From Gymnothorax reevesii (taxonomy: Eukaryota > Chordata > Actinopteri > Anguilliformes > Muraenidae), in the NCBI GenBank assembly GCA_029721435.1, contig CM056576.1:66979876-67043875 (forward strand): 64,000 nt of DNA, read 5' to 3'. The notes beneath the pieces were generated by a model, which had not been told where the DNA came from, made no database searches, and was given only the letters and a program-made list of their open reading frames with translations. Shown here piece by piece: positions 7,375 through 64,000 of the stretch. Position 1 is the first letter of the stretch. The number at the start of each line of letters is the position of its first letter. The translations under genes and the position numbers were made by a program.

Positions 7375-7575
7375 GAGATGCTAACCCACGCCTCTTGTTG
7401 ACCTTGACCTTTGACCTTTCGACCTCAAAATGCAAATTTAGACAGGGTACCTTAGGATCATCTACCCCACAAAGTTTGGTCACCCTGGCTTCAGTGGTGG
7501 CCGAGCTCACACACACACACACACACAGTGCTAAACTGTATACCCACGCCGCCTCGTCGGGCGTGGGTAATAATG
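7375..7575. repeat. Short repeat with (CA)n and terminal hairpin
   Basis: A (CA)10 microsatellite lies at 7508-7527. A perfect hairpin follows at about 7540-7572: 'tacccacgcc', an 8-base spacer, then 'gggcgtgggta'. The start of the block ('acccacgcctc' at 7385) repeats the same motif, suggesting a small hairpin-ended interspersed repeat. Confidence 0.6.
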
Positions 7576-41218: not shown

Positions 41219-41257
<39 letters not shown>

Positions 41258-44200
41258 GGTGGCTGAGGGGACCTAAGAGTTGAGGGGATGATGAGTGGCT
41301 ATCCTGAAGTTTTTGGCTTGTCTTTTTATTTTCCAGGTGCACTAGTTTTGTTATGATAGATGGTATCATTTGGCTGTAAATCTCTGAAAAAGGAAGATCA
41401 CGAATATAATACTCTGGGTTTAATATGCATTTTATATCTGACCCTTAATGATATTGACCTCTCAAACACGCTTTCCAATGGCTCCCTGTTGAATATATGT
41501 CTCAGTCATGCAGTGTGCATCTTCTACCTGGTGCTGCGTGCTCTGGACACTGTAGAGGATGACATGACCATCTCCATGGAGAGGAAGGTCCCCCTGCTGC
41601 ATGAATTCCACAACTTCCTGTATGATCCAGAGTGGAACTTTACAGAGAGTCAAGAGAAGGACCGACAAGTGCTGGAGGACTTCCCCACAGTAAGTGCTCT
41701 CACGCCCTGACCAGAACTGACTTTGAAGATATGCCCATCTACTCAATTTAGGTATTGGTGTTGAGTTACAGCAGTAACTTTTTCTGTCATTCCCCACTTC
41801 GGAGGGGGTTGGGGGACTTACAAGCCCCGCCTGTCTCTCATTGACCCAACAAAATGGAAATGAAATGGGGTATGTTTGAAATTTATTAAAATGACAACAC
41901 GGTGTAAATCAATAAAATCAACTAACAAAAGAAACTAAAAATTCTGTTTACCACCTTGCATCAAATAATGTTGAATTCAAAAACAGAAAAAATAAAAGTG
42001 CAATTGTGTCGTAATTTTGCTTCATTTTGCCAATTTGCAATCAGTGCATTTTTTATTTATTTATTTTTTTAAAGGCAAGAATTCAAAACAAGTAATTCTA
42101 TTGATTCTGTTACATGCATGTCAACTTGTACAGATTGCCTGTAAATTATAAAGAATTCCCCAACAATGCAGATTACATATTTACAAATAAAGTTAAATGG
42201 ATTTTTAATCCCAGCTATGAAGCGTAGCTGGTTAAATCAGCTGTGATGTGTAGCTATTATTGGGATCTTAAGTTCAGTCTGTCAGCGGCAACACAGTAAC
42301 TTCGGAACCATTTTAGAATCAATTTTAAGGCATTGCATGTCTCTAGCTGGAATAAAAAAGAAACTGAGTTCAAGATGGGTATGATATGATGGGTATGAAA
42401 AAAGCTGCTTTGCAGCAGTACAAAATGAATAAATATTCTGAAACTCAGGTTCTTTGATATGCCATTGGACTGCTGTAAATTTGCAGTGGTGCAACATGTT
42501 AGGATTATTAGTGGGATTTTACTTAAATAATTTTAATAATCACAGTCAGATAATATTCATTTTATAATTTTATTTCACGTTGTATGACTTTGCCGAGAAA
42601 CGAAAGTAATTTTCCACAACTCCATCATAGGACCTCTCTGGCCTCAATAGCAGCAACAGTGCTGCTTTTTGCTGTTTTTATATTTTTACATTCTTCATAA
42701 CGGCATAATTAAGACTCTTTCCTCTCAGATTATATTTAATCTAGAAGAATTTTTTCTTGTAAGATTTGATTAATCACACAGCACCCGAGTATGCACGTGC
42801 ATAATTTCAAGTGAACACCTAATCAGTGTAAAACGTCATTTATCCCGTCAAGACGCAGTCCCATTGCCGTGGGTCTTGGTCTGTGCTGGCGGAGCCCCCT
42901 GGTGCCGTGGAGGGCAGATGTCCTACGAATTTTGCTGCTGCGCAGTGTAATGTCATTTTCAAAAACGCTGTCATCCTGAATTGACACGATTGTGGTTTTC
43001 ATAAGAAGGCAATCCTCAGGCTAATTTCTGGTAACTAATTTATATTTTGAATGCCCCGCTGTTCAACAGCACCATTGAAAACTGTTTTGTGACCAAACTA
43101 CACTGTAATCCTATCTGAAATGAATTATTCTGGGATATGCAGAACAGATATAAGGTTTGAAGTAGGTATTTCAAAGTTGAAGGTAGGCAGTAAGGCACTT
43201 TTTGAGCACCAAAGGCATGAGCCCTCTAGTGGGTCTGGGGGCATCGAAAAATTAGAAATTTAGGTGCTTGGAAATGTTACTTTCAGCATATTCCAGTCAG
43301 TATTTGGTCCAAAAGAACAATCAATGCTTAAGCTATGTTTACCATGTTTTCTGTTTAACAACTGTTTTTTAAGCTCCGCTGTGACGATTGACAGTGGAGC
43401 TTTTCTAGTGCTGAGTCGTCCGGCGTCTGTGTGTCCATCCGGCGTCAACTTTTCACTTCAAATTTGAACAGGCCTATCTCAAAAACTGTCTGATAAATTT
43501 CTTTCTAATTTGTTGTGAGCCTTCCTTATGATACTCTGAATATTCACTGTTAAATTCTATTAATATTCAAAATTTAAATTCTACAACCCCAATTCCAAAA
43601 TAGTTGGGACAAAGTGTAAATTGTGAATAAAATCAAAACGCATTGACTTTCGAATCAAACTGGCCAGTATTTTATTTGCAATAGAATAGAGATAAGTAGG
43701 CAAATGTTGAAACTGAGAAATTTACAATTTTATCCACAAAACTGGCGCGTTTTGAATTTGATGGCTGCTACAGGTCTCAAAAAAACTAGGGACAGGTGCC
43801 TGTTTACCATGGTTTAGCATTCCCTCTTCTTTTTAACACAGAGTGGAGGCGTTTGGGCAAGGAGAAAAGTTTCTTGAGTTTAGCCATTGGAATTCGATCC
43901 CACTCTTGCTTAGTACAGGCTTTCAGATGGACCTCAGACCTCAGACCTACCTGCTGGAGAGTTTTTGGTCTCCTTTGACGGACTTTTCGTTTAATTATGC
44001 GCCAAATCTTCTGAATTGGTGAAAGATCAGGACTCAAGCTGGCCAGATCAGCGCACACACTCTTCTACTACGAAGCCATGCTGTTGTAATGGCTGCTGTC
44101 TGTGGTTTTGCATTGCCCTGCTGAAATACACTTGGTCTTCCCTGATGTCATCTGGAGGGGAGCATATGTTGCTCGAAAACCTTTTTATATACCTTTTCAG

Positions 44201-47200
44201 CATTCATTGCGCTTTTTAAAACGTGCAAGTGTCCCACACCATATGCACTAATGCATCCCCATACCATCAGATATGGGTATGGCTTTTGAACTGAACGCTG
44301 ATGACAGAGGGTCTTTTTCCTCTTTAGCCTGGAGGACTCTACGCCCATGATTTTCAACAAGAATGTCAAGTTTGGACTCATCTGACCACAGAACACTTTG
44401 CTACATTTCATTTTAAATGAGCCTTGGCCCACTGAAAATGGCGGCTCTTCTGGATCATGCTCAATAATGCCTTTTTGCATGGAGTTTTAGGTGGCATCTG
44501 TGGATGGGACGGCAGACTGTGTTTACAGGCAGTGGTTTCTTGAAATACTCCTGGGCCCATTTAGTAATGTCAATGACAGAAACATGCCGGTAAGTGATGC
44601 AGTGGCATCTGAGGCCCCAAAGATCACGGGCATCCAGTAAAGGTCTTCAGCCTTGTCCCTTACGCACAGAGATTTTTCCAGTTTCTCTCAATCTTTTGAC
44701 GATGTTATGCACTGTTGAAGATGAGACCTTCAAAGCCTTTGCAATTTGACGTTGAGGAACATTGTTTTTAAAGTATTCCACTATTTTTTTTTTTTTTTTT
44801 TTTTAAAAGATTTTTGGGGGGGGGATTTTTCCTTTTATTTGATAGTTATACAGTGTAGAGAGACAGGATGGCTGGGGAGAGGAATGGGGGAAGACATGCA
44901 GCAAGTGACCCAAGCCGGACTTGAACCCAGGTCGCTGCGGGAAGGACACGGCCTTTATGGAACGCGCACTTAGATGGATGAGCCAATTTGTTATGACGTT
45001 AACGACAGCAAAGGATGACAGACAAAAATTTAAAAACTAAAACACATTTAATTAAACAAAGGCAACTAACAACAAACTACTCTACCGACCAAGATTGATT
45101 AAATACAAAAACAGAAATATTTACAGTCCCTTTGGTGGGTTGCTTGATGATGTCCTAGGTGAGGAAAATGCTGTAACACAGTCAAAAATCCACTAAAAGC
45201 TTCACAGGTCTTAAACAGAATGACAGGTCTGGTCACATGTATCCTTCTCCTTGCAATTTCTCCTACTACTTCATTGTCTCGATTCTCCCCCTTATATATC
45301 TTTTTGCAGACCCCTCCCACCTTTTAGGCTTTTTAAAATTTTTTTCTCTGGGACTTGTCCCAGACATTCCTAAAACATGCCCAAACCTATCTCCAGTCTG
45401 GGCTTAACAAAAAAGGTAAATACTGCCTTCTAGTGGCCTCTATTCACATTACACTTACTCAATGTTCCTTCAGCTGATTCTCTTATATAATAATTGCTTT
45501 TTAAACCCTTTTTTGCCTGTGTCTCAGTTTCAACATTTGAAATGTTATCTATGTTCTATTGTAAATAACATATTGGCTCGTGATCTGAAAGTCATTGCAT
45601 TTTGATTTTATTCACAATTTACACTTCCCAACTATTTCGGAATTGGGGTTGTACGTCCCGGGTGAGAAATTCAGCATTTTGGTCTTTTAGGAAATTGGTG
45701 TTTGTGCCCATTTTACCTGTTCCTATTTCCTGTTCCTATTACCATCATAGTATAGAAAGAATAATCCTAATTAGACCCACTTGATGGCACTGTGTTTAAA
45801 AAAAGAAAAAAAAAGAAAAAAATTGTCTGAAAGCAGAGCAAGAATCAGAAGTGAATCGAGAAGATTGCACGCTTCACAAATTCACAGCAGATGACAGTGA
45901 AAGTTCAGGTTAGAAAAAAATCTAATTAGATTTCATGATGTAGACTTCTTAAGGATTATATTTTTGCTATATATCTGTCACTCATGAAAAGAAAAGTGAC
46001 TGCTCAGTCGAGCTGCCCGATAATGGTAACTAAAACCCTTTTCTCATTGACCTGCGTTGGCCCGCGGAAGTGTGCGGATGAAATGGTTCACAGAGAAGAA
46101 TTGATTCCAAGAACCATGAATTGTTTTGCAGTGCTACGAGACCATTTGCCATCACCGCGAAAATGAAACTTTTCTTTTTTTTTTGCAGATGTCTGAGCTG
46201 GAGCTTTTTAATGCCAATATCGTGTAGACAATGTGTTGCTTTCACAAGAATTTGTGTTGGCTTGCTGTTGAATCCGCGGACTGATTCTAGTTACTTTTCT
46301 CCTGTTGGAGCTGTAACTGCCGGCAACCTTCAGGGCCCTGGCACTTTAGTTTTGTACAAATTTGATCTCGCTTCCAAACTTTTGGCCTGTAGTATCAATT
46401 ATGACTTAACTTTGAACAGGCTATGATGAACAGTCCATTCGTGTCTGACTGGTCGGACATCCTACTTTTGTTTTATTGAAACATCTGACGGTCATGGTCT
46501 GTCAAAGGTCTGTCACTTCTTGCGATTGATAGTCTGACTTGGACAGACAAGTTTATTGAAACAGCCCCCTGGGATCCAATTATGTGAAAATGTCCCTGGC
46601 GTTGTATGACCCTTAGATTCACTCCTGCTCTAGGTTCTGCTCTGCTGCATTGCACGTGGGAAAGGTAAACACGTCTGAGACTCTTGAAATGCATCTTCAC
46701 TTCGACTCAGACGTTTGAAACGGATGTCTTACAATATTTTTGCAGGATGTTTTCAATTGCTTTATTTTAATTGCCTTATAAAAATTAATGGCATATTGAG
46801 AGGAAAATAGACAGTCGAAGATCAGTTAGTAGACTGCTGTTTCGGCCGGGTACCGGCCCATAATGACACCCCTGGATTTCATAGATTCACCTAGCCCATT
46901 GTCGCCACACCAGATCATCATGTTAACGTGATAACTTGAACTGTGTTTAGGGAAATGGCATGAAACTTTGTGTGGCTGAGTTATGAACCTTGTGTGACCC
47001 TAGAACCTTTCCTTTTGCACCGCCACCAGGTCAGACTTAACATTTTCAAGTGCAATATCTCAAACTTTGATAGGAAGCAATTATCATGTCGTGTGTGTTT
47101 CTGGTGTGGAAGGCTCATTATCAATGTTGATCACCTTTATGATTTTTGCTGTCAGGCTAAATTTATAATTTGGAAAAATTGGAATAACTTGACACTTCTT

Positions 47201-50200
47201 AAAGCTACTGTAACTGGTTTTGTCATTTTTGCTAGCTTCCTGTCCGTCGCTGAAGTAAGCAGTTCCCGCCCCCATCCCCAGCCGCACATGAACGCGTATC
47301 AGTTTCCGACAGGCAGAGATGGAGAGCAGTGACCATGGCAGCGACTTGGTTACAATAAAAGTACAATTTTAACAAACACTGTTATTGTTATTTGAAAGCC
47401 ACACTGAAAACGTGGACCAATGGCACATTACATCCAAACAGAAACTTTGGTATGAATGGCCTTTTGAAGGCATTTGCAAAAGCTAGCTAGTGTCCTAGAG
47501 CCACACCAACCAGTAATGGCACAGTAGTATCCCTGAATATGGTGAGGAGATTGCTGATACAAAAAAATTACTTGATTGTCTAATCAAGAACATTTTTCTG
47601 CTAGCTATTTTAAAGCATTTTTTCCCCCTCCTGTTAATACATGCCATTGCAAAGATGGTTCAGCCTACTTTTGTCAGAACAAATATAGCTACCAAGTTCT
47701 GCTATCGTTACACAGCTAATCAAGCTGTCATCGGCCACAAACGATGTCTGCACATTTATAAACTAACATTAAGCAGGATTTAAAACCTCCAACAGGACTA
47801 CCCTAGATTAATGAAACTGCGTAACAACTACAGAGTAAAACATGGCTTACCTGCCCAGTAGCCGCAAGGCCAACTGCACAGCGCTTTTTAGACCCCTGGA
47901 TTCCTTCAGTTTTCTCCACCTCCTGAAAGCAGCACCGATACAAACATGGCACTGGACCATCTCCCATTTTCTCTTACTTGACTATCTGTTCCTCTGCCAG
48001 TTCTTGGCACACACAAACAGACAAAGCACCATCTCTCGTAGCGCTGGGATTGGAAGCTTAATCTGTTCTGCCATGGTCAATAATTCATTCTTCTTTTAAT
48101 GATTTTCCAGCAGGCTTTGCACTAACAAGACAGATTCTGCTCTCTGTGTGTTCACAAGTAGGGAGGACTGCCTCTATGGCGTTCTCTCACCTTATTGGAT
48201 AGAGGCAGCGGGTTACTCCAGAATTTTATAGACTGCTTTACTGCTGAGGGCCGTGACTGAGAGACCTGTTTAAAGGACCAGATACTCCATCTCTGTTGGA
48301 AAGTGGAGCTATTCAACGCTTAAAAAATCAAAAATAAATAAAATCACTTACAGCAGCTTTAAGCTCTATTTTTGTGCTGGCACAAGGGTGGTGCCCATCT
48401 GTAGTGCAGGTGCAATGACATTTTTGTGCATTGTAAGGTAAATTCTGCGCATTTATGCCAGTTTGGTATTTTTGGGGATCTAAATGCATGGACTCCTGTC
48501 AAGATGGGCGAGAAGGCTCTTTGGAGGGTACATTGATAAAGATACGCCAGTCTAATGCAATCATGATGGGTCATTTGAACTCAAATGATGGATATCTCCA
48601 ATTTTTTTTCACAAACAGCCCATCAGTATGGATTTTATGGGCCTCTGAAAAAATGGCCAGTAGGGGTGCTTTTCAAAACATGCTGTTGGAAAAAGTCATA
48701 TCTTTGATTCTATCGCCATGTTTCCATCCACACGTACTTTTGTGAATTAAGTCATATCGAATTAAAAATGTCCTATGTAAACGGTGAAATTCGACTTGAT
48801 TTCAGGAATATCGACACAAAGTTTAAACTATTGATCTGATCGGATTTTCTCCTGATCAGTAAAAGGCTTATGCGATAAAAGCTGATGGAAACATTATTAG
48901 CTGAATAAATATGCCTCTGCATCGTGACGGTGTTTTGATGCCGTTGTTGTTTTCTGATAATGGTTTGCTATGTTGCTAATAGCGGGCACATAAGCAAGTA
49001 CAACTTGTGCAGTTATCATCATTTGGTTGTAGACCCCATCCATTTAGGGTAACTAGCTAAATTAGTCAGCTAACGCACTACTTTTGTTCACTTAAAAGTT
49101 CTGCAATTCAGTGCGAAAATGAATGGAAAATGCTTAAAATGTCAAATCTATTCAGTACACCAATTTGATTGCATAACAGCATGTGACGTCATTACGCAAA
49201 ACTTTTTATTCGCTTTAATGCCGTTAGATGGAAAACATTTTCACCTGCTTTTTTTCGCATGAATATTTTTGGTGAACTTTTGATGGTTCGATTGACAAGT
49301 GGATGGAAACATCGCTTATGACAGATACAGATCTGGAAAGTGGCTTGGTCCTTGACATGAACCTTGCTCTAGGCTGACAATCTTTAAAGGTTGCGTGTAT
49401 CAGTGGTGAATGCCATGGAATGTAAGGTCAAAGTTGGGGTTCCCAAAAATATTTTCCACTTTTTCAATCCTAATTACTCACTGATAGTTGGAAAGAGTGA
49501 TCAACTGATGCCAGGAACCTTTTATTTCAGGTAGATTCTTGCCATTTCTATCAAAAAATCAAAACTTTGAGAGCGTTAATCTGAACAACTACTAAGTTGG
49601 TTGCAGCTGTTGAAGGGCCCAAGTTTAAGGGCCTAGCTCACCCCCGGGGGAAAGTTGCACTGACACCACTTTGCACTTGAGCAGTGTCTAATGACCTGAA
49701 TTACACTGCTATGGCCCAAAAATCCAGTATATAGGCCTGTTTCCCACCAAAAAGCTGGCCTAAAAAGTTGTAAAAATCATTGTTTTTCCAAGCCAAGTGA
49801 AAACACACCTGGCCCATCATGGTCTTGGATTTTATTTGAACTTTGTCCCAAATTTGTTCATTTGACCCAAATAATGGATATCTCAAATTTTTCTGCAAAC
49901 TGCCCCCTGGTTTGGGTTTTATGGACCTCTGAAGAAATGGCCGATAGGGGACTCTTCTCAAAACCTCCTGTAGAAAAATCCGTATCTCTGGCCCTATTTC
50001 TGATACAGGTCTAGGGTTTGGATGGATTTTTAATATGAAGCTTCCTCTAGCACCACTATCATTTACGATGGTTGTATCTGTTTTTGTTTCCATGGAAACT
50101 GCTTCATCCTCGAGAGTCTGTGTGTAAACGGTCTCTGCACTTAAACGCCATGAAATCCAACAGCCATCACATCCTCATCCCCTAATCTCCCCAACAATAT

Positions 50201-53200
50201 TAATCGTAGGCAATTCCATAATCAGAAACATTTGTTTCTTCAATTCAGCCCCCCACTGCTTTCCCGGAGCTACAGTCCCCGTTATCTTGGATAAATTCTG
50301 GGGACTTCTACATTCACTCCCATTCTCCATAAACCGAGTATTAGTGCATGTTGGAACAAATGATACTGCTCATCAGCAGTCTGAGGTGACCAAACAGGAT
50401 TTTAACAAGCCTTTTAACTTTAGCAACTATGGAAGTCAGTTTTTATTTCTGGTCCAATTACCACATTGCCCCATGGAGTTCGGTGTTTCAGCAGAATCGT
50501 CAGTCTTCAGTCTGCACGTGGAGCTCGGAGTATCAATTTTATTGACAATTTTAACCAATTTTTGGAACTTTTGTCCCTTCAAAAATGGTGTTCACCCAAA
50601 CAGGCTGGGTAGCCGAATGCTAGCAGCCAATCTGCAGCATGCCGTTCAGTCCTCCTCATGTGACTGACTGTTTGCATTGAATGCTCTCTCCGGAAATTAA
50701 TTCTTCAGTGGTATTGGCTCCGTACACTATATCTACAGTTAGCACCCTCTCTCAGCCCATTGACCCTTTTCACTCCCGCTGCTCACTTATAATTATAGCA
50801 TTTCAGCACCCGTTTGTTTACAGTCTCATGCGTTGTTTTATTTCTGCCAGAGAGGCGCGTGATTCGCAAGTGGTGACAGCGGTAGGCAAGTGGAAGGGGC
50901 GCTGCGTCAGATGACAGACTGGAAGCTCGGCAAATAATTTTATTCGGACCGAAGAAAATGATTGGTCAGACTAAACAGCAATATATAAGAATTGAGTTTC
51001 AACACCTGGTGGATTTCTTGTACATTTTAGTATGCCATACGCTTATTATGAGCATTTTAAGATTACAAAAGTGTAAAAATGCCAGAAAGGTAAGAATTGC
51101 TTTAATTTCAGAAATCCTTAAACTATTGTAATGTGAACACATGACACATTTGGAAACCAGATTGTCCTGTGAACCAGATTGTCGTCTCAATTAATGTAGT
51201 ACAACAATAGAACCACACTACAAATTGCAATCATTTACTTCAATCATTTTACCAGCAAGCAATACTAACAACCAACAAATACCCTCCCCCCCGTACAGAT
51301 ATTCAAATTTGAAGTGAAAAGTTGACGATCATATTGTTCCAGATCATGTTATTCTGCTTCATGCTGTTCTTCATTGTTGTTCTTGATTAACTGTTCTGGA
51401 ACATATTGTTCGGCCTCATATTGTCCTATGACGGTGTCAGAAGGATTGTGACTGCTATATTTGTGATGTACCGGGGGGGAAGGGTATTTGTTGGTTGTTA
51501 GTATTGCTTGGTGGTAAGATGATTGAAATAAATGATTGCAATTTGCAGTGCGGTTCTATTGTTATACTACTATTTCTGAAATTAAATTATGAAATGGACA
51601 TTTTACTCATCCTCAGTGGAGCTCTCTATGCCGACAGGCCTCTTGTTACTTTGATAATTCAAAAACGTCTTCTGCAAAACCAGTGGACTGATTAAGCTGA
51701 AACCTGGCAATAGTGTTGCTACACATGAGTAGATGAAAGTTTTTTTTTTTCAAATCATTTTAATCCAAAATCCAATATGGTTGCCACAGCCTTTACCTTG
51801 AAAATCTTAAAACCTCTCAGAAACCTCTTGAAGGATTTAGTGAAAACTTAAGTGAGTGTTCCTACACATTAGTAGATTAATGTTTGTTCAAATCATTCTT
51901 ATTCAAAATCCAATATGGCCACCACAGCCTTGAATTTGAAAATCTAAAAGCATCTCCTAAACCACCGGACGGATTAAGCTGAAACTTGACACGTGCATTC
52001 CAACACGAGGAGATTAAAGTTTGTTCAAACTATTCTGACCCAAAATCCAATATAGCCGCTACAGTGCTGACCTTGAAAATCTAAAAATGTCCTCTTCTCC
52101 AAAACCACTGGACCGATTTAAGCTGACCCTTGGCATGACAAAAAAGTTTCTTCAGATCATTCTGATCCAAAATCCAATATGGCTGTCACAGCTTTGACCT
52201 CCAAATGTAAAAACATTATCTTCGCCGAAAGCTCTTGACAGATGATGCTGAAACTTGGCAAACATGTTCCTATCCATGTTAATTTCACCTAACAAATCCC
52301 AATTTTACCTATATCTGAGGCATTTCTGGATGCTTTCAACCCAAATTTGGTATGTATGTACTAAGTACCATTATTTGATACACAATACAAATCGGCTGTA
52401 CTTTGCATATTGACCTACATTTTTTGCTCACGTACATTTTGCAGTTGTGCAGTGATCCAGACGGTCAGTCCTGGTGAGCTACAATGCCAAATGGCACTAT
52501 TTCTAAGATTATGGCTTCTGTGGCACAAAATCTAATTACTTTCCCTTTTTCCAAACAATAGATTTCTGTTGAGTTCAGGAACCTGGGCCAAGAGTATCGA
52601 GAGGTGATATCCGATATCTGTCACCGCATGGGTGTGGGAATGGCAGAATTCCTTGAAAAGAAAGTCGGCTCAATGAAAGAATGGGACAAGGTATGTTCAT
52701 TTAGTCTGAACTGTTGATAATTTACATTGAAGTTTAAATTTGGGATTTTCATATGCGATTTCCCAGAGAGATTAAATCCTACTTCCTGGTCAGAAATGGT
52801 GGCAATCGAGCAGATAAATTGTTGGGGCACAAGTTTCCTGTAAAGTGATCATTGATCACAATATGTTGTCATTTATTTTCCTTGTGTAACAAGTGTGGCT
52901 AGAGCCAGTGCATCCATTCGTTATCTAATCTGCTTATGCTTGGTCTTGGTCACTGGAATGCTGTAGCCTATGCCAGCAGCCTGTGAGCCAGAGGCATAAC
53001 TGAGTACTTTGTGACTTTATCATTACTTATAAATAAAAATGACTGCTAACAGGTCTATTTCAAGGAAAGTATTGTGCCCCACCAATTTCCTGCTGGTTGG
53101 AAGCGGACTGTTATCTCATGCAACAGAGTCCTGAACCATCCACTTTTGATGGAGTTGGGAGTATTCATTAAGTTGCACCTGAATTGAAAACTCTTTTCAG

Positions 53201-53959
53201 TAATAAATTGTACCCCTCAATGGGGATTTTGTATTGCCTTCTGGCACTATTTGTTAGTAACAGTTCTTTTTCTATCTGAGTAGAGTGAGTTTGTGACCCA
53301 AAATGTATTCAACTTACACATAAATGCTAGTGGAGTCTTTTTAAACATTGGACTGTTGCTGTTACCTGACTGATCATAGAAACATTAATAAACAGTTATG
53401 TAAAATAAAGCTTAAGTAGGCAATAGATTATACGGAAGAAATGACGTGTCATGAGTGATCCGTTCCAACATTATGCTCCTGCTAGCCTTTTTGGGAACAA
53501 AAATAACAGCTTTTAACCGTCAATTGCACATAGTTTATCGACTGTTGGCAATTCCTTGATATGGACTTTGTTGTCTTCATGAATAAGTGCTATACTTCTA
53601 TGTGATTAAGTACTCGCTTGATGCATTGCTACATGTGAATTTGTGAATGTTGTGTGAATATTGTATGTTGCAGTTACCAGGTGAGTCAAAAACATGGATA
53701 ATCTAGTTTTATTGTGCTGCATTGTTCATTCAGTGTTCTGATGTGAACTTGGTAATGTGGTTTACAGTATTGTCACTATGTGGCTGGGCTGGTGGGCATC
53801 GGGCTGTCTCGGCTTTTTTCCGCCTCGCAATTGGAAGATCCAGAAGTGGGGAAAGATGATGAGTTGGCCAACTCCATGGGCCTCTTTCTCCAAAAGACCA
53901 ACATTATTCGAGACTATCTAGAAGACCAGCAGGACGGACGGGCCTTCTGGCCAAAAGAG
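27578..53959 (+). CDS. FDFT1: Squalene synthase (exons 1-5 of a longer gene)
   Basis: Farnesyl-diphosphate farnesyltransferase joins two farnesyl diphosphates, via presqualene diphosphate, into squalene with NADPH. This is the committed step to cholesterol, at the ER membrane. The joined coding exons are 27578-27676, 40684-40781, 41506-41689, 52562-52690 and 53768-53959: 234 residues of the usual ~417. The first aspartate-rich motif DTVED falls at residues 80-84, the catalytic tyrosine of [10 protein letters not shown] at 171 and the second motif DYLED at 219-223, all at human numbering, so no indels have occurred. The C-terminal half and membrane anchor are encoded beyond 64000. No stop or frameshift is seen in the exons. 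Introns 1, 3 and 5 are greatly enlarged by transposons. Confidence 0.97.
28680..29696 (-). pseudogene. Tc1-like transposase remnant
   Basis: The frame at 29298-29696 keeps the whole N-terminal DNA-binding part: two HTH-like segments ([21 protein letters not shown] and [14 protein letters not shown] with VRRAIH), followed by the linker to [13 protein letters not shown] stop then cuts the frame just ahead of the first catalytic block. The catalytic half (about 28680-29297) is fragmentary and further split by the 28976-29112 insertion. It is inactive. Confidence 0.85.
28976..29112. mobile_element. Small MITE-like insertion in transposon
   Basis: 'tacccctcagccc' (28976-28988) and the near complement 'gggttgaggggta' (29078-29090) are inverted ends of a 115-bp GC-rich block with 'gggcggg' repeats. 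A 20-base tail with 'gtgcattgcac' follows. Other copies of the host family lack this block. Confidence 0.7.
30122..31130. other. Intron 1 sequence, no gene seen
   Basis: Short open frames without recognisable domains. No RNA gene or clear repeat structure found. Confidence 0.5.
31143..31977 (+). pseudogene. Tc1-like transposase fossil
   Basis: Related to the nested element at 5411-7025. Recognisable pieces are a 'gctagcatctgtgatggtat' block (VWGC strand region, 31388-31407), the HMLPSK-type region near 31495 and [15 protein letters not shown] at about 31627-31671, the glutamate block. The tail 'tttctcagtttcaacatgtg' matches the family 3' end. It carries many stops and no intact terminal repeats. 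Confidence 0.75.
31978..33569. repeat. Unclassified interspersed repeat region
   Basis: This begins 'ggtcattccatatgaaatca' and contains 'attttatgggcccccgaaaa', a variant of the block at 48624-48645 and 49918-49934. It also contains the second copy of the 186-310 repeat at 32797-32915. The block 33296-33395 carries 'gtccgtccgttc' motifs. No coding capacity found. Confidence 0.5.
32797..32915 (+). repeat. Dispersed repeat, copy 2
   Basis: Direct match to 186-310. Shared blocks are 'ttatgtttagaaactttt', 'gaggttgagt' and 'ggacatccaacattat'. Confidence 0.7.
33570..34997 (+). mobile_element. hAT element with degenerate transposase
   Basis: The ends 'tagtgatgcgcgggtcg' and the near complement of 'cgacccgggcataacta' are flanked by a perfect 8-bp duplication, gtagacag, at 33562-33569 and 34998-35005. 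The subterminal regions carry 'gggtcggg' and 'gggttggg' repeats. The 1428-bp element retains a fossil of the transposase C-terminus at 34310-34440. Confidence 0.95.
34310..34440 (+). pseudogene. hAT transposase C-terminal fossil
   Basis: In frame from 34310 it reads [20 protein letters not shown], then RRNR, a stop at 34397-34399, then [14 protein letters not shown]. This is the hAT dimerisation (hATC) region, whose hallmark is a T/S-rich SERxFS segment followed by the V/LxFLH helix. Nothing of the catalytic core was recognised upstream. Confidence 0.85.
35006..37344. other. Intron 1 sequence, no gene seen
   Basis: No recognisable coding or RNA features. An (AAT)n stretch lies at about 36174-36190 and a T-rich run near 36366. 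The open frames here have no family signature. Confidence 0.5.
37345..37935. repeat. Fragments of two dispersed repeat types
   Basis: 37387-37427 carries repeated 'gtccgt' (as at 33355). 37755-37780 reads 'gtatagtatataaagatgga', similar to the ends of the element at 55371-55832 ('ctgtataaaaagatggatg'), suggesting a degraded relative of it. Confidence 0.5.
37936..40683. other. Distal intron 1, no gene seen
   Basis: No gene recognised. The block 39440-39790, ending 'catggaatggcccg', resembles the complement of the phrase opening the repeat at 31978. The last ~25 bases before 40684 form a good polypyrimidine tract for exon 2. Confidence 0.5.
40684..40781 (+). CDS. FDFT1: FDFT1 exon 2
   Basis: Starts after 'tttctcctgccag' in phase 0 and reads [20 protein letters not shown] to ALDGELR. 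The last arginine codon is split after two bases. Donor gtaagt. These residues contribute to the prenyl substrate pocket in the family. Confidence 0.97.
41221..41254. repeat. (TG)n microsatellite
   Basis: About 17 uninterrupted TG units in intron 2, roughly 250 bases before exon 3. Confidence 0.95.
41506..41689 (+). CDS. FDFT1: FDFT1 exon 3, first Asp-rich motif
   Basis: Starts after 'atatgtctcag' with the third base of the split codon and reads [20 protein letters not shown] to QVLEDFPT, ending in phase 0 before gtaagt. DTVED (residues 80-84) binds magnesium and the diphosphate of the first farnesyl group in this family. Confidence 0.98.
41690..43583. other. Intron 3, proximal part, no gene seen
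   Basis: AT-rich with T runs at about 42048-42072. The stretch 43370-43460 carries a fragment of the dispersed 'gtccggcg' repeat type. No gene found. Confidence 0.5.
43804..44780 (-). pseudogene. Tc1-like transposase remnant
   Basis: From high to low coordinates: HTH region (about 44520-44780), a damaged catalytic strand region (44148-44480, with [15 protein letters not shown]) and the [17 protein letters not shown] block (43804-44058), where the glutamate expected after SPI is replaced by glutamine. Several frame breaks occur. It is inactive. Confidence 0.85.
44800..44988 (-). mobile_element. tRNA-derived SINE, reverse orientation
   Basis: Read on the minus strand it has the B-box-like 'ggttcaagtcc', the body 'ccatcctgtctctctac' and a tail of 'aaataaaaggaaaaatcc' plus a C-run and A-run. 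It is the same family as the SINE at 24659-24854. Its 5' end abuts the solo LTR directly. Confidence 0.82.
44989..45453 (-). repeat. Solo LTR, Gmr1-like family
   Basis: The 465 bases match the complement of the LTRs at 57776-58272 and 63334-63830 along their length: 'tgttatg' start, 'ctaaaacacatttaatt', the TATA region complement near 45292, and 'tattcacattaca' end. It is clearly diverged and about 30 bases shorter near the U5 end. Flanking 4-5 bp do not match, so the target duplication has decayed or been deleted. Confidence 0.88.
45654..47198. other. Intron 3 sequence, no gene seen
   Basis: No recognisable gene. A-rich run at about 45798-45822. Open frames lack any family signature. Confidence 0.5.
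47203..48358. mobile_element. piggyBac-like non-autonomous element
   Basis: The inverted ends 'agctactgtaactggtttt' (47203-47221) and the complement of 'aaaatcacttacagcagct' (48340-48358) are each bounded by TTAA (47199-47202 and 48359-48362), the piggyBac target. The interior 1.1 kb has no transposase. Confidence 0.72.
48571..48714 (+). repeat. Dispersed repeat, copy A
   Basis: Direct repeat of 49858-49997. Shared blocks are 'atggatatctc', 'gggttttatgg-cctctga' and 'aaatggcc-ataggg'. Unknown family; non-coding. Confidence 0.75.
49858..49997 (+). repeat. Dispersed repeat, copy B
   Basis: Matches 48571-48714 in the same orientation, about 1.29 kb downstream. A weaker relative occurs near 32105. 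Confidence 0.75.
50178..50670 (+). pseudogene. LINE ORF1 esterase-domain fragment
   Basis: One frame reads [10 protein letters not shown] (GDS-like first block), [14 protein letters not shown], then [19 protein letters not shown] (the GxND block) and finally [19 protein letters not shown] (the DxxHP-type block, here with N instead of D). This is the SGNH hydrolase-like esterase domain found in ORF1 of CR1/L2-type fish LINEs. The middle part is diverged and no ORF2 follows. It is a dead fragment in FDFT1 intron 3. Confidence 0.78.
51196..51570. mobile_element. Foldback element, ~95-bp arms
   Basis: The left arm 51196-51291 and the right arm 51477-51570 are near-perfect inverted copies, for example 'actaacaaccaacaaatacc' and 'ggtatttgttggttgttagt'. 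Both arms end in C7/G7-type runs facing the centre. The central ~185 bases contain 'attgtt' motifs. No transposase is present. Confidence 0.9.
51655..52265. repeat. ~137-bp tandem repeat, ~4.5 copies
   Basis: The anchor 'aaaatccaatatgg' recurs at 51767, 51905, 52042 and 52169 (spacings 138, 137, 127). Each unit also carries 'gctgaaac-tggca' and 'cacagc-ttgaccttgaaaat'. Ends about 300 bases before FDFT1 exon 4. Confidence 0.88.
52562..52690 (+). CDS. FDFT1: FDFT1 exon 4
   Basis: 43 codons, phase 0 at both ends, from [12 protein letters not shown] to GSMKEWDK (residues 128-170). Acceptor 'ccaaacaatag', donor gtatgt. Contains the [13 protein letters not shown] helix conserved in squalene synthases. 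Confidence 0.98.
52691..53767. other. FDFT1 intron 4, no gene seen
   Basis: 1077 bases, AT-rich, with no recognisable repeat or gene. Confidence 0.7.
53768..53959 (+). CDS. FDFT1: FDFT1 exon 5, catalytic Tyr and second Asp motif
   Basis: 64 codons, phase 0 at both ends. Opens with [14 protein letters not shown], whose first tyrosine is residue 171, the proposed catalytic base region. DYLED is at 219-223. Ends FWPKE before gtatgt. This is the last exon visible in the window. Confidence 0.98.
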
Positions 53960-54089
53960 GTATGTCTCGAAGCCTGAATTTATCCCATGGTTCAGTACAT
54001 TAGTGTCTGATGGCACCTTTGGAAAGCGCCAGTTTGGGCATGCTTCTTGGCAAGGTCACCATAAAAGGGCTTTTTATCCCCCGCCAACA

Positions 54090-57771: not shown

Positions 57772-57775
57772 GTGT

Positions 57776-58272
57776 TGTAATGTGAATATAGGCCACTAGA
57801 TGGCAGTATTTACCTTTTTTTGTTAAGCTCAGACTGGAGTCATGTTTAGACATGTCCTGGACATGTCTGGGGCAAGTCTCAGAAAATTAAAAAAAAAGAG
57901 GTCTAAATGTGGGTGGGGTCTGCAAAAGAGTATATAAGGAAAAGAATTGAGACAGTAAAGTAGTAGGAGAAATTGCAAGAAGATGACCAGACCTGCCATT
58001 CTGTTCAAGACCTGTGACGTTTCTTTTGTGGATTTCTTTGACTGTGTTTGAGCATTTTCTTCATCCAGGACATCACCAAGCCACCCCACTAAAAAGGGAC
58101 TGTAATTATTTCTGTTTTTTCTTATTTATCAATCTTGGTCTTTAGTTGTAGGTTGTTATTAGTCTTTGTCTTTGTTAAAAATTAAATGTGTTTTAGTTGT
58201 TAAAACTGTGTTTTGTCATCCCTTGCTGTTGCTGTTGTGTTATAAATGTAATAACAAATTGGGGCCATAACA
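57776..58272 (+). repeat. 5' LTR, 497 bp
   Basis: It starts tgtaatgtg and ends ccataaca. A TATA box (tatataa) lies at 57931-57937, so transcription should start about 30 bases further on. I found no difference from the 3' LTR by eye. Confidence 0.96.
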
Positions 58273-58275
58273 AAT

Positions 58276-58293
58276 TGGGGGCTCGTCCGGGAT
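58276..58293 (+). promoter_or_regulatory. Primer binding site, tRNA-Pro type
   Basis: The 18 bases tgggggctcgtccgggat complement the 3' end of tRNA-Pro, the same primer site as in murine leukaemia-type retroviruses. It begins three bases after the LTR. Confidence 0.9.
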
Positions 58294-58385
58294 AGACCAT
58301 TGTGTGAGTAATTTATTGAAAATCTAACATTCCAAATTGTGAAATTGTTTTTGTGAATTTTCCTAGATATATATTGACAACAGCA

Positions 58386-61300
58386 ATGGATGATTTCTTG
58401 GCATCACCAACCGTAGGGGTTTTGAAGTCTTTTAAAAAGACAGAACTGCTAGAAATTTGCAGACAGTTGGAGCTGACAGAGGTAAAACCAGCCATGCGAA
58501 AAGCAAGACTGGCTAGAGAGATAGTTGAATATTACATTGATGAAAATGTGTTTGCACCAGGAGATCTGGAACAGTTTCCAGTGGAAAATCCAAATATAGA
58601 AATGGAACTTAAATTAAAAATGCTAGAGATTGAAAGGGAGGAAAGAGAAAAAGAAAGGGAGGAAAAAGAGAAAGAAAGGGAAGAAAGAGAAAAAGAAAGG
58701 GAGGAAAAAGAAAAACAAAGAGAATTTGAGAGGGAAGAAAAAGAAAAACAAAGGCAGTTTGAGTTAGAAAAATTAGCAAGAGAAGAAAAACAAAGAGAAT
58801 TTGAGTTAGAAAAATTTGCAAGACAGAGAGATTTTGAATTAGAGAAACTCGATAGAGAAGAAAGACTCCAAATGGAGCAACTAAAAATAAAAATTCAAAC
58901 TGAAAATAAATTTCGGGCTAGCCAGGAGGTAAAACTGGTGCCTCCATTTTCGGAAAAGGATGTTGACAACTATTTCCAGTGTTTTGAAAAGGTAGCAAAG
59001 AGTTGCCAGTGGCCAAAGGAACACTGGCCTCTGATGTTGCAAACTGTCCTCAAGGGTAAAGCTCAACAAGCCTATTCGGCTTTGTCTGCAGATGATTCCT
59101 CTGATTATGAGGTTGTCAAAAAGGTTATTTTGAGAGCTTATGAGTTGGTTCCAGAGGCTTACCGACAGAAATTCAGAGGTCTGAAGAAATCTGAAAATCA
59201 GACTTATGTTGAATTTGCTAATGAAAAGCAGGTTTGCTTTGAGCGCTGGTGTACTTCTATGGAGGTCAAGGATGATTTCAACTCACTAAAAGAGATGGTG
59301 TTAGTTGAAGAATTCAAGAACTGTGTTAAAGATGATGTTAAGACCTACCTTAATGAGAAGCAAGCACTGAATTTGCAATCAGCTGCCAAATTTGCAGATG
59401 AATATGTTCTCACACATAAGTCCAAATTTCAGTCTAGCAGTAATAATAGATGGTCCCAATTTCAGAAAAAGGGTTATGGTGATACCCAAGATTCCTCACC
59501 CAAAGACAAAGAAAAATCTGGTGATGGTGCTCAGAAATCCAGTAACAGGTCTGATCAAAGTGTGAAAGCTGACAGTGACAAAAGTGGTCTAGTTTGCAGT
59601 TATTGCAAGAAATCTGGTCATGTTACAACTAACTGTTGGTTCCTTAAAGCTAAGAAAGAAAAAGAAAAGGATACCAAACCAAATGCCTTTGTGAAAACAA
59701 GGTTAGAAACCCCTGTAGTAGATAACCAATCTGCTAAATTGCCTGCTTCTTGTGGGGCTAAAAAGCCTAATACAGCTGACTTTGTGAGGGAGGAATTTCT
59801 TCCATTTGTGTCAGAGGGATTTGTGGCTCTGAATGAGCATACTACTCCTGTCCCCATATATATCCTAAGGGATACCGGAGCTTCTCAGTCACTTTTGTTG
59901 ATGGACTCCTTGGAGTTACGTGATGAGACCGCTTCAGGGGATTTCATACTTGTACAAGGTATTGAAGGGAGGACTGTATCTGTACCCCTGCGCTCTATAT
60001 TCTTGAAGTCAGATTTAGTTACAGGACAGGTAAAGGTGGGACTTATGTCAAGTCTACCTATAAAGGGTGTTTCTCTGTTGCTAGGCAATGACCTGGCTGG
60101 GGGCAAAGTAGTTCCCCCTGTACATCTTACTTCACAGCCGAGCACTGAAAATGGGGATGAGGACCCATCTCTGTATCCTTCTTGCGCAGTGACTCGTGCT
60201 ATGGCCAAGAAGGCTAAAGAAGATGATGTTGTGGTGCCGTCCAGTACATTGAATAGTCAGGACTCAGGTGGTTCGCCTCATGACTCTGATTGGCCTACTA
60301 TGGTTTCTCCGTTTGAGGACTTATCAGATACTTTTATCAGTTCTCTATTCAGCCAGCCGGATGGGTCTGGTGATTCTGATGTGTCTGGAGACTTGTCTCT
60401 GTCCAGAAAGCGGTTGATTGAGGAGCAAACTAATGATCCTGAAATTGGTGTACTAAAGAGGAGAGCCCTTCCTGAAAAAGAAATAGATGCAGTTCCAGTT
60501 GGGTATTATCTCAAGGATGGTGTGTTGATGCGGAAGTGGCGCCCTCCTGATATCCCTGCCAATGCAGATTGGGCAGTGGTCAGGCAAATTGTTGTTCCGA
60601 AGGTCTATAGGAATGAGATCTTAACAATGGCTCATAGTTTACCTTTAGGAGGTCATCTTGGTGTTAACAAGACTGTTGATAAGATCATGAAACACTTCTT
60701 TTGGCCTGGGCTTCGGAAAGACGTTTCCAACTTTTGCAAAACCTGTCACACTTGTCAGGTAGTTGGAAAACACCAGTTAGACCCACCTGTAGCTCCATTG
60801 CAGCCTATCCCAGCATTTGGGGAGCCATTCTCTAGGGTCATTGTTGATTGCGTTGGTCCATTACCCAAGACTAGATCTGGAAATCAGTACTTGTTGACAA
60901 TCATGTGTGCATCTACCAGATTCCCCGAAGCCATACCTCTACGTAACATCAAGGCAACTGCAATCTCGAAGGCTTTGATAAAGTTCTTCACGTTGTTTGG
61001 CCTTCCCAGGGAAATTCAGTCAGACCAAGGTAGCAATTTCACTTCAGGATTGTTTCAGCAGGTTGTGTATGAACTAGGTGCAAAACAGATTCTTTCTAGT
61101 GCCTATCATCCAGAAAGTCAGGGTGCCTTAGAGCGGTTTCATTCCACTCTCAAGACAATGATGAGGACTTATTGTTATGACCATGAGAAAGACTGGGATG
61201 AAGGGGTTCATTTGCTGTTGTTTGCAGCTAGAGAAGCAGTGCAGGAGTCTACTGGATTCAGTCCATTTGAGCTAGTGTTTGGTCATGAAGTGAGAGGACC

Positions 61301-63200
61301 TTTGCTATTATTGAGTGAACAATGGCAAGAGGAAGAGCCGCAAATCAGTCTGTTAGACTATGTTAGCAAGTTCAAGGAAAGATTGTGTGCAGCTTGTGAC
61401 CTTGCCAAAGAGAACTTGAAATCAAGTCAGGGAAAAATGAAAACTTGGTATGATCATAAGGCTAGAAGCCGTGAGTTTAAACCAGGAGAAATGGTCCTTG
61501 TGTTGTTTCCCTTGCAGTCCAATCCATTGCAGGCTAGATTTCATGGTCCATATGAAATTCTGACAAAACTCAATGATCTCAATTACATTGTGAAGACTCC
61601 AGATAGGAGAAAACCAAAACAATTGTGTCATATTAACATGCTAAAGCCTTATCATGACAGAAATGCTAGGGTTGCAGCTGTCACTTCAGATTCTCCAATG
61701 GTCGAAACGTGTGAAGATGAGGGGGAGTTTCAAGATGATGAACCAAGAATTAAAGCTGAAGTTCTTTCATGTAAATTGTCAAACACTGAAGTGTTGCAAA
61801 ATCTTGATGTAAAACTCCAGCACTTAGAACCCTCACAGAGAGATCAGTTTGAAAGGTTGATCAAGAAATATGAGGATTTGTTTCCTGATGTTCCAAAGAG
61901 AGTTACTATAGCCTCTCATGATGTAGATGTTGGTGATGCCAAATCAATAAAACAGCATCCATACCGGATGAATCCTGAAAAGAGAAAGATTGCTGAGAAA
62001 GAGGTTGAGTACATGTTAAAACATGATATTATCAGACCCTCCAACTCCGATTGGAGTTCACCCTGTGTGCTAGTTCCAAAACCTGATGGAAGTACTAGAT
62101 TCTGTACAGATTATCGCAAAGTCAATGCTGTAACTAGAACTGATGTGTTTCCAATACCTAGGATTGATGATTGTATTGATAGTGTAGGGCAAGCAAAGTT
62201 TCTGACCAAGATTGATTTATTGAAGGGTTATTGGTGTGTGCCTTTAACTGAGAGGGCCAAGAGCATCTCTGCTTTTGCCACACCATCTGGATTGTACCAG
62301 TATGAAGTCCTACCCTTTGGCATGAAAAATGCCCCAGCCACGTTCCAAAGGATGATACAGTCTACAATCGCCGGATTGCCACACACGGGTGCGTACATCG
62401 ATGACCTGATCACATGGAGTGACTCCTGGGAAGAACATCTAAAAGATGTAGAGACGTTGTTCCAGCGCCTGACCCAGGCTAACCTGACTGTTAACCTAAG
62501 CAAGAGTGACTTTGGTTGTGCTACTGTCACCTATCTTGGCTACGTCATAGGCCAGGGTAAGGTGGCACCCATAAATGCTAAAGTCCAAGCCATCATGGAC
62601 TTTCCAGTTCCTGACAACAAAAAAGCTTTGCGCCGCTTCCTTGGAATGATCGGGTACTACCGCAAGTTCTGCAAGAACTTTGCTGAGATTGCTCTCAGTC
62701 TAACTAACCAACTGAAGAAAGGCGTAAAGTTCACCTGGGATGATGCATGCCAGAGAGCCTTCGATCACCTGAAGTCTCTGCTGTGTCACTTCCCCGTGCT
62801 CAAATCTCCTGACTTCAACAAACCGTTCTCCATCGCGGTCGATGCTAGCGACCAAGCTTGTGGATCTGTGCTCCTACAGAGAAGTGACTCTGATGACATT
62901 GAGCATCCCGTGGCATACTTCTCCAGGAAGTTCAATCGCCACCAAAGGAACTATTCCACAATAGAGAAGGAACTGTTGGCTCTGGTCCTTTCTTTACAAC
63001 ACTTTGAGGTTTATGTTTGTACAGGACAAAAGCCAATGATTGTGTACACTGACCACAATCCGTTAATGTTTTTGAGTAAGATGAAAAACAAGAATCGGAG
63101 ATTGTTGAATTGGAGTTTGATTTTACAGGAGTTTGACTTGGAAATTAAGCATGTGAAGGGTACAGACAATGTAATTGCTGATTGCTTATCCCGTGTTTGA
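58386..63200 (+). CDS. Gag-Pol polyprotein, integrase before RT
   Basis: The single open frame of 1604 residues has no stop or shift. The first in-frame ATG at 58386 is taken as the start; the frame is open a little upstream but without ATG. Order: SAP-like N-terminal helices (58400-58545); a Glu/Lys/Arg coiled coil (58610-58900); capsid (58920-59420); CCHC knuckle CSYCKKSGHVTTNC (59595-59636); protease DTGAS (59871-59885); integrase HHCC zinc region (60633-60760); integrase D-D35-E with residues at 60846, 61023 and 61131; RT with YIDD at 62394-62405; RNase H ending at the stop. All catalytic landmarks are intact. It would package, cleave, copy and integrate its own RNA. Gag and Pol in one frame implies processing rather than frameshifting. 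Confidence 0.96.
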   Translation: MDDFLASPTVGVLKSFKKTELLEICRQLELTEVKPAMRKARLAREIVEYYIDENVFAPGDLEQFPVENPNIEMELKLKMLEIEREEREKEREEKEKEREEREKEREEKEKQREFEREEKEKQRQFELEKLAREEKQREFELEKFARQRDFELEKLDREERLQMEQLKIKIQTENKFRASQEVKLVPPFSEKDVDNYFQCFEKVAKSCQWPKEHWPLMLQTVLKGKAQQAYSALSADDSSDYEVVKKVILRAYELVPEAYRQKFRGLKKSENQTYVEFANEKQVCFERWCTSMEVKDDFNSLKEMVLVEEFKNCVKDDVKTYLNEKQALNLQSAAKFADEYVLTHKSKFQSSSNNRWSQFQKKGYGDTQDSSPKDKEKSGDGAQKSSNRSDQSVKADSDKSGLVCSYCKKSGHVTTNCWFLKAKKEKEKDTKPNAFVKTRLETPVVDNQSAKLPASCGAKKPNTADFVREEFLPFVSEGFVALNEHTTPVPIYILRDTGASQSLLLMDSLELRDETASGDFILVQGIEGRTVSVPLRSIFLKSDLVTGQVKVGLMSSLPIKGVSLLLGNDLAGGKVVPPVHLTSQPSTENGDEDPSLYPSCAVTRAMAKKAKEDDVVVPSSTLNSQDSGGSPHDSDWPTMVSPFEDLSDTFISSLFSQPDGSGDSDVSGDLSLSRKRLIEEQTNDPEIGVLKRRALPEKEIDAVPVGYYLKDGVLMRKWRPPDIPANADWAVVRQIVVPKVYRNEILTMAHSLPLGGHLGVNKTVDKIMKHFFWPGLRKDVSNFCKTCHTCQVVGKHQLDPPVAPLQPIPAFGEPFSRVIVDCVGPLPKTRSGNQYLLTIMCASTRFPEAIPLRNIKATAISKALIKFFTLFGLPREIQSDQGSNFTSGLFQQVVYELGAKQILSSAYHPESQGALERFHSTLKTMMRTYCYDHEKDWDEGVHLLLFAAREAVQESTGFSPFELVFGHEVRGPLLLLSEQWQEEEPQISLLDYVSKFKERLCAACDLAKENLKSSQGKMKTWYDHKARSREFKPGEMVLVLFPLQSNPLQARFHGPYEILTKLNDLNYIVKTPDRRKPKQLCHINMLKPYHDRNARVAAVTSDSPMVETCEDEGEFQDDEPRIKAEVLSCKLSNTEVLQNLDVKLQHLEPSQRDQFERLIKKYEDLFPDVPKRVTIASHDVDVGDAKSIKQHPYRMNPEKRKIAEKEVEYMLKHDIIRPSNSDWSSPCVLVPKPDGSTRFCTDYRKVNAVTRTDVFPIPRIDDCIDSVGQAKFLTKIDLLKGYWCVPLTERAKSISAFATPSGLYQYEVLPFGMKNAPATFQRMIQSTIAGLPHTGAYIDDLITWSDSWEEHLKDVETLFQRLTQANLTVNLSKSDFGCATVTYLGYVIGQGKVAPINAKVQAIMDFPVPDNKKALRRFLGMIGYYRKFCKNFAEIALSLTNQLKKGVKFTWDDACQRAFDHLKSLLCHFPVLKSPDFNKPFSIAVDASDQACGSVLLQRSDSDDIEHPVAYFSRKFNRHQRNYSTIEKELLALVLSLQHFEVYVCTGQKPMIVYTDHNPLMFLSKMKNKNRRLLNWSLILQEFDLEIKHVKGTDNVIADCLSRV

Positions 63201-63324
63201 ATGTGTATATATATATCATGTGTTTGAATATTGTGTGATATGTATATATAGACAAGTGTTCACTTAACCATTTTGTATTGAAAAGAAAAATTTTGCCTTT
63301 ATTTGTCAAAATTTTTCCCTTTTG

Positions 63325-63333
63325 GAATGGAGG
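63325..63333 (+). promoter_or_regulatory. Polypurine tract
   Basis: The purine-rich 'ggaatggagg' segment immediately before the 3' LTR is the expected plus-strand primer. It is short and interrupted by one T. Confidence 0.7.
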
Positions 63334-63830
63334 TGTAATGTGAATATAGGCCACTAGATGGCAGTATTTACCTTTTTTTGTTAAGCTCAGACTGGAGTCA
63401 TGTTTAGACATGTCCTGGACATGTCTGGGGCAAGTCTCAGAAAATTAAAAAAAAAGAGGTCTAAATGTGGGTGGGGTCTGCAAAAGAGTATATAAGGAAA
63501 AGAATTGAGACAGTAAAGTAGTAGGAGAAATTGCAAGAAGATGACCAGACCTGCCATTCTGTTCAAGACCTGTGACGTTTCTTTTGTGGATTTCTTTGAC
63601 TGTGTTTGAGCATTTTCTTCATCCAGGACATCACCAAGCCACCCCACTAAAAAGGGACTGTAATTATTTCTGTTTTTTCTTATTTATCAATCTTGGTCTT
63701 TAGTTGTAGGTTGTTATTAGTCTTTGTCTTTGTTAAAAATTAAATGTGTTTTAGTTGTTAAAACTGTGTTTTGTCATCCCTTGCTGTTGCTGTTGTGTTA
63801 TAAATGTAATAACAAATTGGGGCCATAACA
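63334..63830 (+). repeat. 3' LTR, 497 bp
   Basis: Same length and, as far as read, same sequence as the 5' LTR. TATA box at 63489-63495. Confidence 0.96.
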
Positions 63831-63831
63831 G

Positions 63832-64000
63832 TGTAATGTGATTATAGGCCACTGGATGGCAGTATTTACCTTTTTTTGTTAAGCCCAGACTAGAGCTAGG
63901 TTTGGACATGTTCTGGGCATGTCTGAAACAAGTCCCAGAGAAAAGAAAAAAAGTCTAAAAGGTGGGAGGGGTTTGCAAAAGAGTATATAAGGAGGGAGAA
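63832..64000 (+). repeat. Older Gmr1-like LTR, cut by window end
   Basis: It begins tgtaatgtgattatagg and aligns with the first ~170 bases of the young LTRs with many substitutions and small indels. It keeps the 'gagtatataaggagg' TATA region. It is separated from the young 3' LTR by one base, because the young element inserted at its very start. Confidence 0.9.

What the first reader, a model, noticed from the sequence alone, without database searches (positions are those of the whole stretch)
57776..63830. Intact Gmr1-type retrotransposon with integrase ahead of RT
Ty3/Gypsy elements normally place integrase after RNase H. Here the HHCC/DDE integrase (about 60600-61200) precedes RT (about 61900-62500) and RNase H ends the ORF. 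The Gmr1 clade, first described from Atlantic cod, has this order, so the arrangement is known but uncommon. This copy is notable for being full length with an uninterrupted gag-pol and all catalytic motifs present.
Basis: partly seen in the sequence, partly recalled or inferred. Interest (0 to 1): 0.75.

Follow-up and report, generated by a model that had tools for sequence, protein, structure and literature searches.

The report
Young Gmr1-type retrotransposon in moray eel
This is a recently inserted, complete-looking jumping gene of the known Gmr1 group, whose integrase and reverse transcriptase come in the reverse of the usual order; it is a well-preserved example of something already described, sitting inside a fish cholesterol-synthesis gene.

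Summary
Window 57776-63830 holds a 6,055-bp LTR retrotransposon with identical 497-bp LTRs, a GTGT target-site duplication and one 1,604-aa gag-pol frame, ordered SCAN-type capsid, zinc knuckle, protease, integrase, RT, RNase H. The order is no assembly error: 22 of 23 family loci examined in this genome have it (the other is a solo LTR), and 18 of 18 loci with both LTRs read in full have an exact 4-bp duplication. So do 115 of the 120 relatives listed. RT and integrase trees put the integrase-first rows, window included, in one clade. No named Gmr1 sequence was available, so membership rests on order, SCAN gag, clade and literature. LTR pairs of 18 copies, picked by likeness to this one, differ by 6 substitutions in 8,961 positions. 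The host is almost certainly Gymnothorax reevesii, and the copy lies in sense orientation in an intron of FDFT1 (squalene synthase). Gmr1's order, SCAN gag and recent activity are published. New member of a known kind; low interest.

The parts
57772..57775 (.). target-site duplication GTGT, left copy
57776..58272 (+). 5' LTR, 497 bp, identical to the 3' LTR; TATATAA at 57931 and ATTAAA at 58181 as candidate promoter box and poly(A) signal
   Evidence: roles of the two motifs inferred
58276..58293 (+). primer binding site, 18 nt, of the tRNA-Pro type used by murine leukaemia virus (identification recalled)
   Evidence: sequence; the tRNA gene search did not complete
58386..63200 (+). single gag-pol open reading frame, 1,604 aa
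58625..58863 (+). tandem-repeat region of gag coding a charged, probably coiled-coil stretch
   Evidence: coiled coil inferred from the sequence
59151..59423 (+). SCAN domain (capsid C-terminal domain) of Gag
   Evidence: Pfam PF02023, E 7.5e-11
59595..59636 (+). CCHC zinc knuckle CSYCKKSGHVTTNC
59871..59885 (+). aspartic protease active-site motif DTGAS; protease domain around it
   Evidence: domain not called by Pfam
60594..61649 (+). integrase: H2C2 zinc domain, rve core (D 60846, D 61023, E 61131, spacing 35), p58_C / GPY module
61950..62549 (+). reverse transcriptase, YIDD at 62394
62736..63197 (+). RNase H, ends the open frame
63334..63830 (+). 3' LTR
63831..63834 (.). target-site duplication GTGT, right copy; it overlaps the first bases of an older solo LTR that starts at 63832

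Best explanation
An autonomous-looking Ty3/Gypsy LTR retrotransposon of the Gmr1 clade, inserted recently. Inferred cycle: the LTR promoter makes a genomic RNA; the single gag-pol frame is translated as one polyprotein; the SCAN-bearing capsid assembles particles; the protease releases integrase, then RT-RNase H; tRNA-Pro primes cDNA synthesis; the integrase inserts the cDNA with a 4-bp stagger. Shown here: the anatomy, the 4-bp duplications, near-identical LTR pairs, integrase-first order in other copies, and the clade. Inferred: transcription, processing and present mobility. The swapped order probably does not change the biochemistry, because each enzyme is cut out of the polyprotein. It looks like one ancient rearrangement inherited by the whole clade.
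For: Domain order. Ty3 has RT 598-1008 before integrase 1088-1444 in one chain, the reverse of the window. 18 of 18 loci with both LTRs read have exact 4-bp TSDs, 6 mismatches in 8,961 LTR positions in all, and integrase upstream of RT in the same frame. Four further loci show the same order and one is a solo LTR, so 22 of 23. 115 of the 120 listed relatives are integrase-first; 4 are RT-first and 1 lacks an integrase match. One integrase-first clade in the RT and integrase trees. Published Gmr1 features: integrase upstream of RT (PMC8220671), SCAN domain in over half of frog Gmr elements (PMC4131045), similar sizes in four pufferfish Gmr elements (6,058-6,465 bp; one gag-pol of 1,506-1,634 aa, PMC11117352).
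Against: No named Gmr1 reference sequence was in the trees, and 20 of the 23 RT-first rows come from one pseudoscorpion. A 2008 paper states, without data, that Gmr-1 proteases carry a TIHG motif (PMC2577118); it is absent from the window protein and from 116 of 116 relatives checked. No transcript or transposition evidence. Copies were picked by LTR likeness to this one, so the age estimate leans young.
Confidence: 0.95

Rival explanations
1. An assembly chimera or a nested join of two Ty3/Gypsy elements that only looks integrase-first.
For: The element abuts another, older LTR (81% identical) at 63832.
Against: 22 of 23 loci have the same order, and 18 of 18 loci with both LTRs read in full have an exact 4-bp TSD; the frame is continuous through both domains. 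In the 8-kb stretch fetched around and beyond the abutting LTR (L009) no capsid, integrase or RT piece of the family matched, so it reads as a solo LTR hit by the insertion.
Confidence: 0.01
2. A Ty1/Copia element, or a Copia-Gypsy recombinant that took its integrase from Copia.
For: The pol order matches Ty1/Copia.
Against: Pfam calls are the Gypsy/retrovirus types (RVT_1, RT_RNaseH, Integrase_H2C2, p58_C); no Copia RVT_2 model matched at E 0.001. The best integrase chain in the PDB is Ty3 (3e-32). The integrase tree keeps the window inside one clade with the RT's relatives, but no Copia rows were included.
Confidence: 0.02
3. A Ty3/Gypsy lineage that gained integrase-first order independently of Gmr1.
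For: No named Gmr1 sequence was compared.
Against: All 53 other integrase-first rows kept and the window form one clade against 23 RT-first rows; the capsid piece of the window, which holds the SCAN domain, matches 97 of the 120 listed relatives; published Gmr1 descriptions match.
Confidence: 0.03

Closest known systems
Gmr1 clade of Ty3/Gypsy (Gmr1 of Atlantic cod; deuterostome group of Goodwin and Poulter 2002; originals not seen, known here from citing passages and reference lists)
   Same: Integrase upstream of RT, SCAN-type capsid, about 6 kb, LTR about 0.5 kb, one gag-pol frame; young copies as reported in pufferfishes
   Different: Only species and sequence; nearest relatives 80% identical in RT among those listed, 77% among those in the tree, and 85% in integrase. 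Lacks the TIHG protease motif attributed to Gmr-1 in one paper
Ty3 and other canonical Ty3/Gypsy elements, such as the chromodomain element at 16086-19912 of this window
   Same: Homologous RT, RNase H and integrase; 32% RT-RNase H identity and 29% integrase identity to the window's own chromodomain element
   Different: RT before integrase; chromodomain and Retrotrans_gag in the window's second element
Ty1/Copia
   Same: Integrase upstream of RT (stated in PMC8220671)
   Different: Domain families are of the Gypsy type

Membership tests
Gmr1 clade | integrase upstream of RT-RNase H within a Ty3/Gypsy pol | tested here: met
Gmr1 clade | RT and integrase in one clade of integrase-first elements | tested here: met
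   RT 100, integrase 98, SH-aLRT, quick trees; 20 of 23 RT-first rows are from one pseudoscorpion and several rows have long branches
Gmr1 clade | groups with the named cod Gmr1 sequence | not testable with these tools
   none of the 120 hits listed bore that name
Gmr1 clade | Gag with SCAN domain | tested here: met
   PF02023 E 7.5e-11
Gmr1 clade | protease with TIHG motif, as stated without data in PMC2577118 | tested here: not met
   absent in the window and in 116 of 116 relatives; a literal string was searched and the claim may concern a looser pattern, so not treated as defining
LTR retrotransposon | LTRs, PBS, duplicated target site | tested here: met
   PBS identity recalled
Ty1/Copia | Copia-type RT (RVT_2) | tested here: not met
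   RVT_1 and Gypsy-type RNase H only

The most novel reading that the evidence does not exclude
The family is still moving in moray eels, and this sense-strand copy in an FDFT1 intron supplies a promoter or poly(A) site that alters squalene synthase transcripts in carriers. Its integrase also prefers a weakly palindromic site: A or T three bases outside the 4-bp stagger on both sides.
Probability: 0.08. Interest if true: 0.35.

Novelty: new member of a known kind. Interest (0 to 1): 0.15.

Why it matters
It adds a young, many-copy Gmr1 family in an eel genome. The paper on that genome tabulates LTR elements as a class in the passages seen, and its main text has no occurrence of Gmr, gypsy or retrotransposon. 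The family offers several near-identical copies for studying how an integrase-first Gypsy polyprotein is processed and where it integrates. It does not change the picture of Gmr1.

Tried and rejected
Assembly chimera, Copia membership and independent origin were considered and set aside (see rivals). Gag capsid piece against PDB sequences: no match at E 0.1. N-terminal gag region and protease region against Pfam at E up to 1: five matches, none reaching its curated cut-off. COX1 in the own genome to name the host: no match; the host was named instead from FDFT1 exons and assembly size. tRNAs and Rfam families in the window: none. A genome-wide protein census, a RAG1 search and a tRNA-Pro gene check did not complete. 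Structure prediction was not run, because the domains are clear by sequence. The SCAN paper (Emerson and Thomas) is not held; the two original Gmr1 papers were seen only as citations and were not looked up.

Rows dropped: the trees used the first 40 of 53 integrase-first rows and left out two rows from concatenated pseudoscorpion gene models (P0156, P0170), which the script had labelled integrase-first because they hold alternating RT-IN-RT-IN units. (RT only) put back all 13 and both of these: the 54 integrase-first rows stay one side of a branch and the two fall among RT-first rows, on long branches. Redundant rows were removed at 78-80% identity (201 units to 77).

Full report
Observation. 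The reported element is real and its ends are exact. The LTRs 57776-58272 and 63334-63830 are identical over 497 bp. The left flank ends GTGT and the right flank begins GTGT, a 4-bp target-site duplication. Right after the 5' LTR, TGGGGGCTCGTCCGGGAT at 58276-58293 is a primer binding site of the tRNA-Pro type (recalled from murine leukaemia virus; the host tRNA search did not complete). One frame of 1,604 aa runs 58386-63200.

Order of domains. Pfam gives SCAN, Integrase_H2C2, rve, integrase p58 C-terminal, RVT_1, RT_RNaseH in that order. A CCHC knuckle lies at 59595 and a DTGAS protease motif at 59871. The catalytic residues of integrase, RT and RNase H are present and placed in window coordinates; they face the same residues in Ty3 and PFV, except the third RNase H Asp, which faces Asn in the deposited chain 4ol8. 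In Ty3 the two regions occur in the opposite order in one chain: RT 598-1008 and integrase 1088-1444 of 7q5b. The window itself holds a canonical control: the broken chromodomain element at 16086-19912 has gag, protease and RT, then RNase H, integrase and chromodomain, with RT-RNase H matching at 17313-18485 and integrase at 18701-19675.

Not an assembly error. The first 300 bp of the LTR, searched in the own genome, gave 800 first-look candidates of which 40 were scored and listed. These 40 fall at 23 loci, the window included. In 18 loci both LTRs were fetched complete: 18 of 18 have an exact 4-bp duplication and integrase upstream of RT in the same frame; 17 of 18 have the capsid piece, and L029 lacks it. 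Three more (L026, L030, L031) have a 5' LTR cut by the end of the stretch fetched and the same order, and L028 has the same order with one LTR in the stretch fetched. L027 is a solo LTR: no capsid, integrase or RT piece matched in the 10 kb fetched, and ATAT stands on both sides. That makes 22 of 23 loci with integrase before RT. Whether the other copies' frames are free of stops was not counted.

Age. Over the 18 LTR pairs there are 6 substitutions in 8,961 compared positions; 13 of 18 pairs have none, one of these 13 having a one-base gap. The set was chosen by likeness to the window LTR, so older copies are under-represented. Two older relatives of the LTR lie near by: one at 45005-45453 on the minus strand (80%) and one starting at 63832 and running past the window (81%, L009:208-693).

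Relatives and trees. A search with residues 1180-1604 found 3,357 proteins, 120 listed. Of these 120, 115 have an integrase match upstream of RT (P0016 and P0013 in broken pieces), 4 are RT-first (two ryegrass, two pseudoscorpion) and 1 has no integrase match. Named integrase-first relatives include a sawfish, sea cucumbers, a brittle star and the coral Paramuricea clavata. In quick maximum-likelihood trees the integrase-first rows form one side of a branch: RT SH-aLRT 100 with 41 against 23 rows, integrase 98 with the same rows, and RT 100 with 54 integrase-first rows, 23 RT-first rows and 2 rows from concatenated gene models. Of the 23 RT-first rows 20 come from one pseudoscorpion, 2 from ryegrass and 1 is Ty3; the program warned of long branches among them; no Copia or named Gmr1 rows were available. 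A single origin of the order is therefore supported within this sample, not proven.

How it works. Shown: structure, duplications, near-identical LTR pairs. Inferred: LTR-driven RNA (TATATAA at 57931, ATTAAA at 58181), tRNA-Pro priming, one Gag-Pol polyprotein with no frameshift, protease cleavage into integrase and RT-RNase H, and insertion with a 4-bp stagger. In the 18 insertion sites the base three positions outside the duplication is A or T on both sides, 36 of 36, against 60% A+T in the flanks (0 of 20,000 random placements). The positions were chosen after looking at the table, so this is a lead.

Host and site. Exons of squalene synthase FDFT1 lie on the plus strand at about 40.7, 41.5, 52.6 and 53.8 kb, and the next ones at L009 about 7300-7460 and 7680-7850, beyond the window. 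So the element lies in sense orientation in an FDFT1 intron. Only the exon at 41.5 kb was matched to a solved squalene synthase; the others were found by recalled motifs and as a joined query matched squalene synthases over its whole length, Conger conger best (91%), then other bony fishes. The genome has 2,173,976,663 bases and contig C8 has 112,885,341. The Gymnothorax reevesii paper reports 2.17 Gb, 21 chromosomes and a scaffold N50 of 112.89 Mb (PMC10387071, passages). The host is therefore almost certainly that species, by inference.

Literature. Seen as passages only: PMC8220671 (Gmr1 has integrase usually upstream of RT; one annelid family in the clade), PMC4131045 (SCAN in over half of frog Gmr elements; about 200 copies in Silurana), PMC11117352 (pufferfish Gmr elements of similar length, Gmr1 with an activity peak at insertion age zero), PMC3424704 (vertebrate SCAN domain derived from a Gmr1-like gag), PMC2577118 (Gmr-1 proteases said to carry TIHG, data not shown; not found here in the window or in 116 of 116 relatives), PMC8556966 (Gmr1 present in several phyla).. 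These make the finding ordinary in kind. A search for any two of Gmr1, Anguilliformes, eel genome, moray and retrotransposon found 117 papers; none of the 10 listed holds Gmr1.

Verdict. The element is a young, well-preserved member of a known clade.

Noticed in passing
window 40700-53970 and L009:7300-7850: Exons of the host gene FDFT1 (squalene synthase) on the plus strand; the retrotransposon lies in sense orientation in the intron after the exon at about 53.8 kb.
   Followed up: partly
63832 to beyond the window (L009:208-693): An older solo LTR of the same kind (81% identical) starts at 63832; the young element inserted into its first bases, so the GTGT duplication includes its start.
   Followed up: yes
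45005-45453, minus strand: A relic LTR about 80% identical to the element's LTR.
   Followed up: partly
16086-19912: A broken chromodomain Ty3/Gypsy element in canonical order (RT before integrase); a further RT fragment lies at 9919-10323 on the minus strand.
   Followed up: partly
L010, L011, L014 against the window copy: These copies are 40-42 bp shorter between LTR start and capsid piece; the repeat-coded stretch of gag is the likely place, but where the difference lies was not checked.
   Followed up: no
4384-4935 (-), 5955-6536 (+), 22572-23090 (+), 29298-29696 (-): Frames that look like Tc1/mariner transposase fragments, judged by eye only.
   Followed up: no
proteins P0084 and P0115: Integrase-first relatives filed under Campylobacter sp. 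and Candidatus Thiodiazotropha, most likely animal DNA in bacterial assemblies.
   Followed up: no
18 insertion sites: A or T at the third base outside the 4-bp duplication on both sides, 36 of 36; G or C at the first duplicated base in 15 of 18. Chosen after looking.
   Followed up: partly
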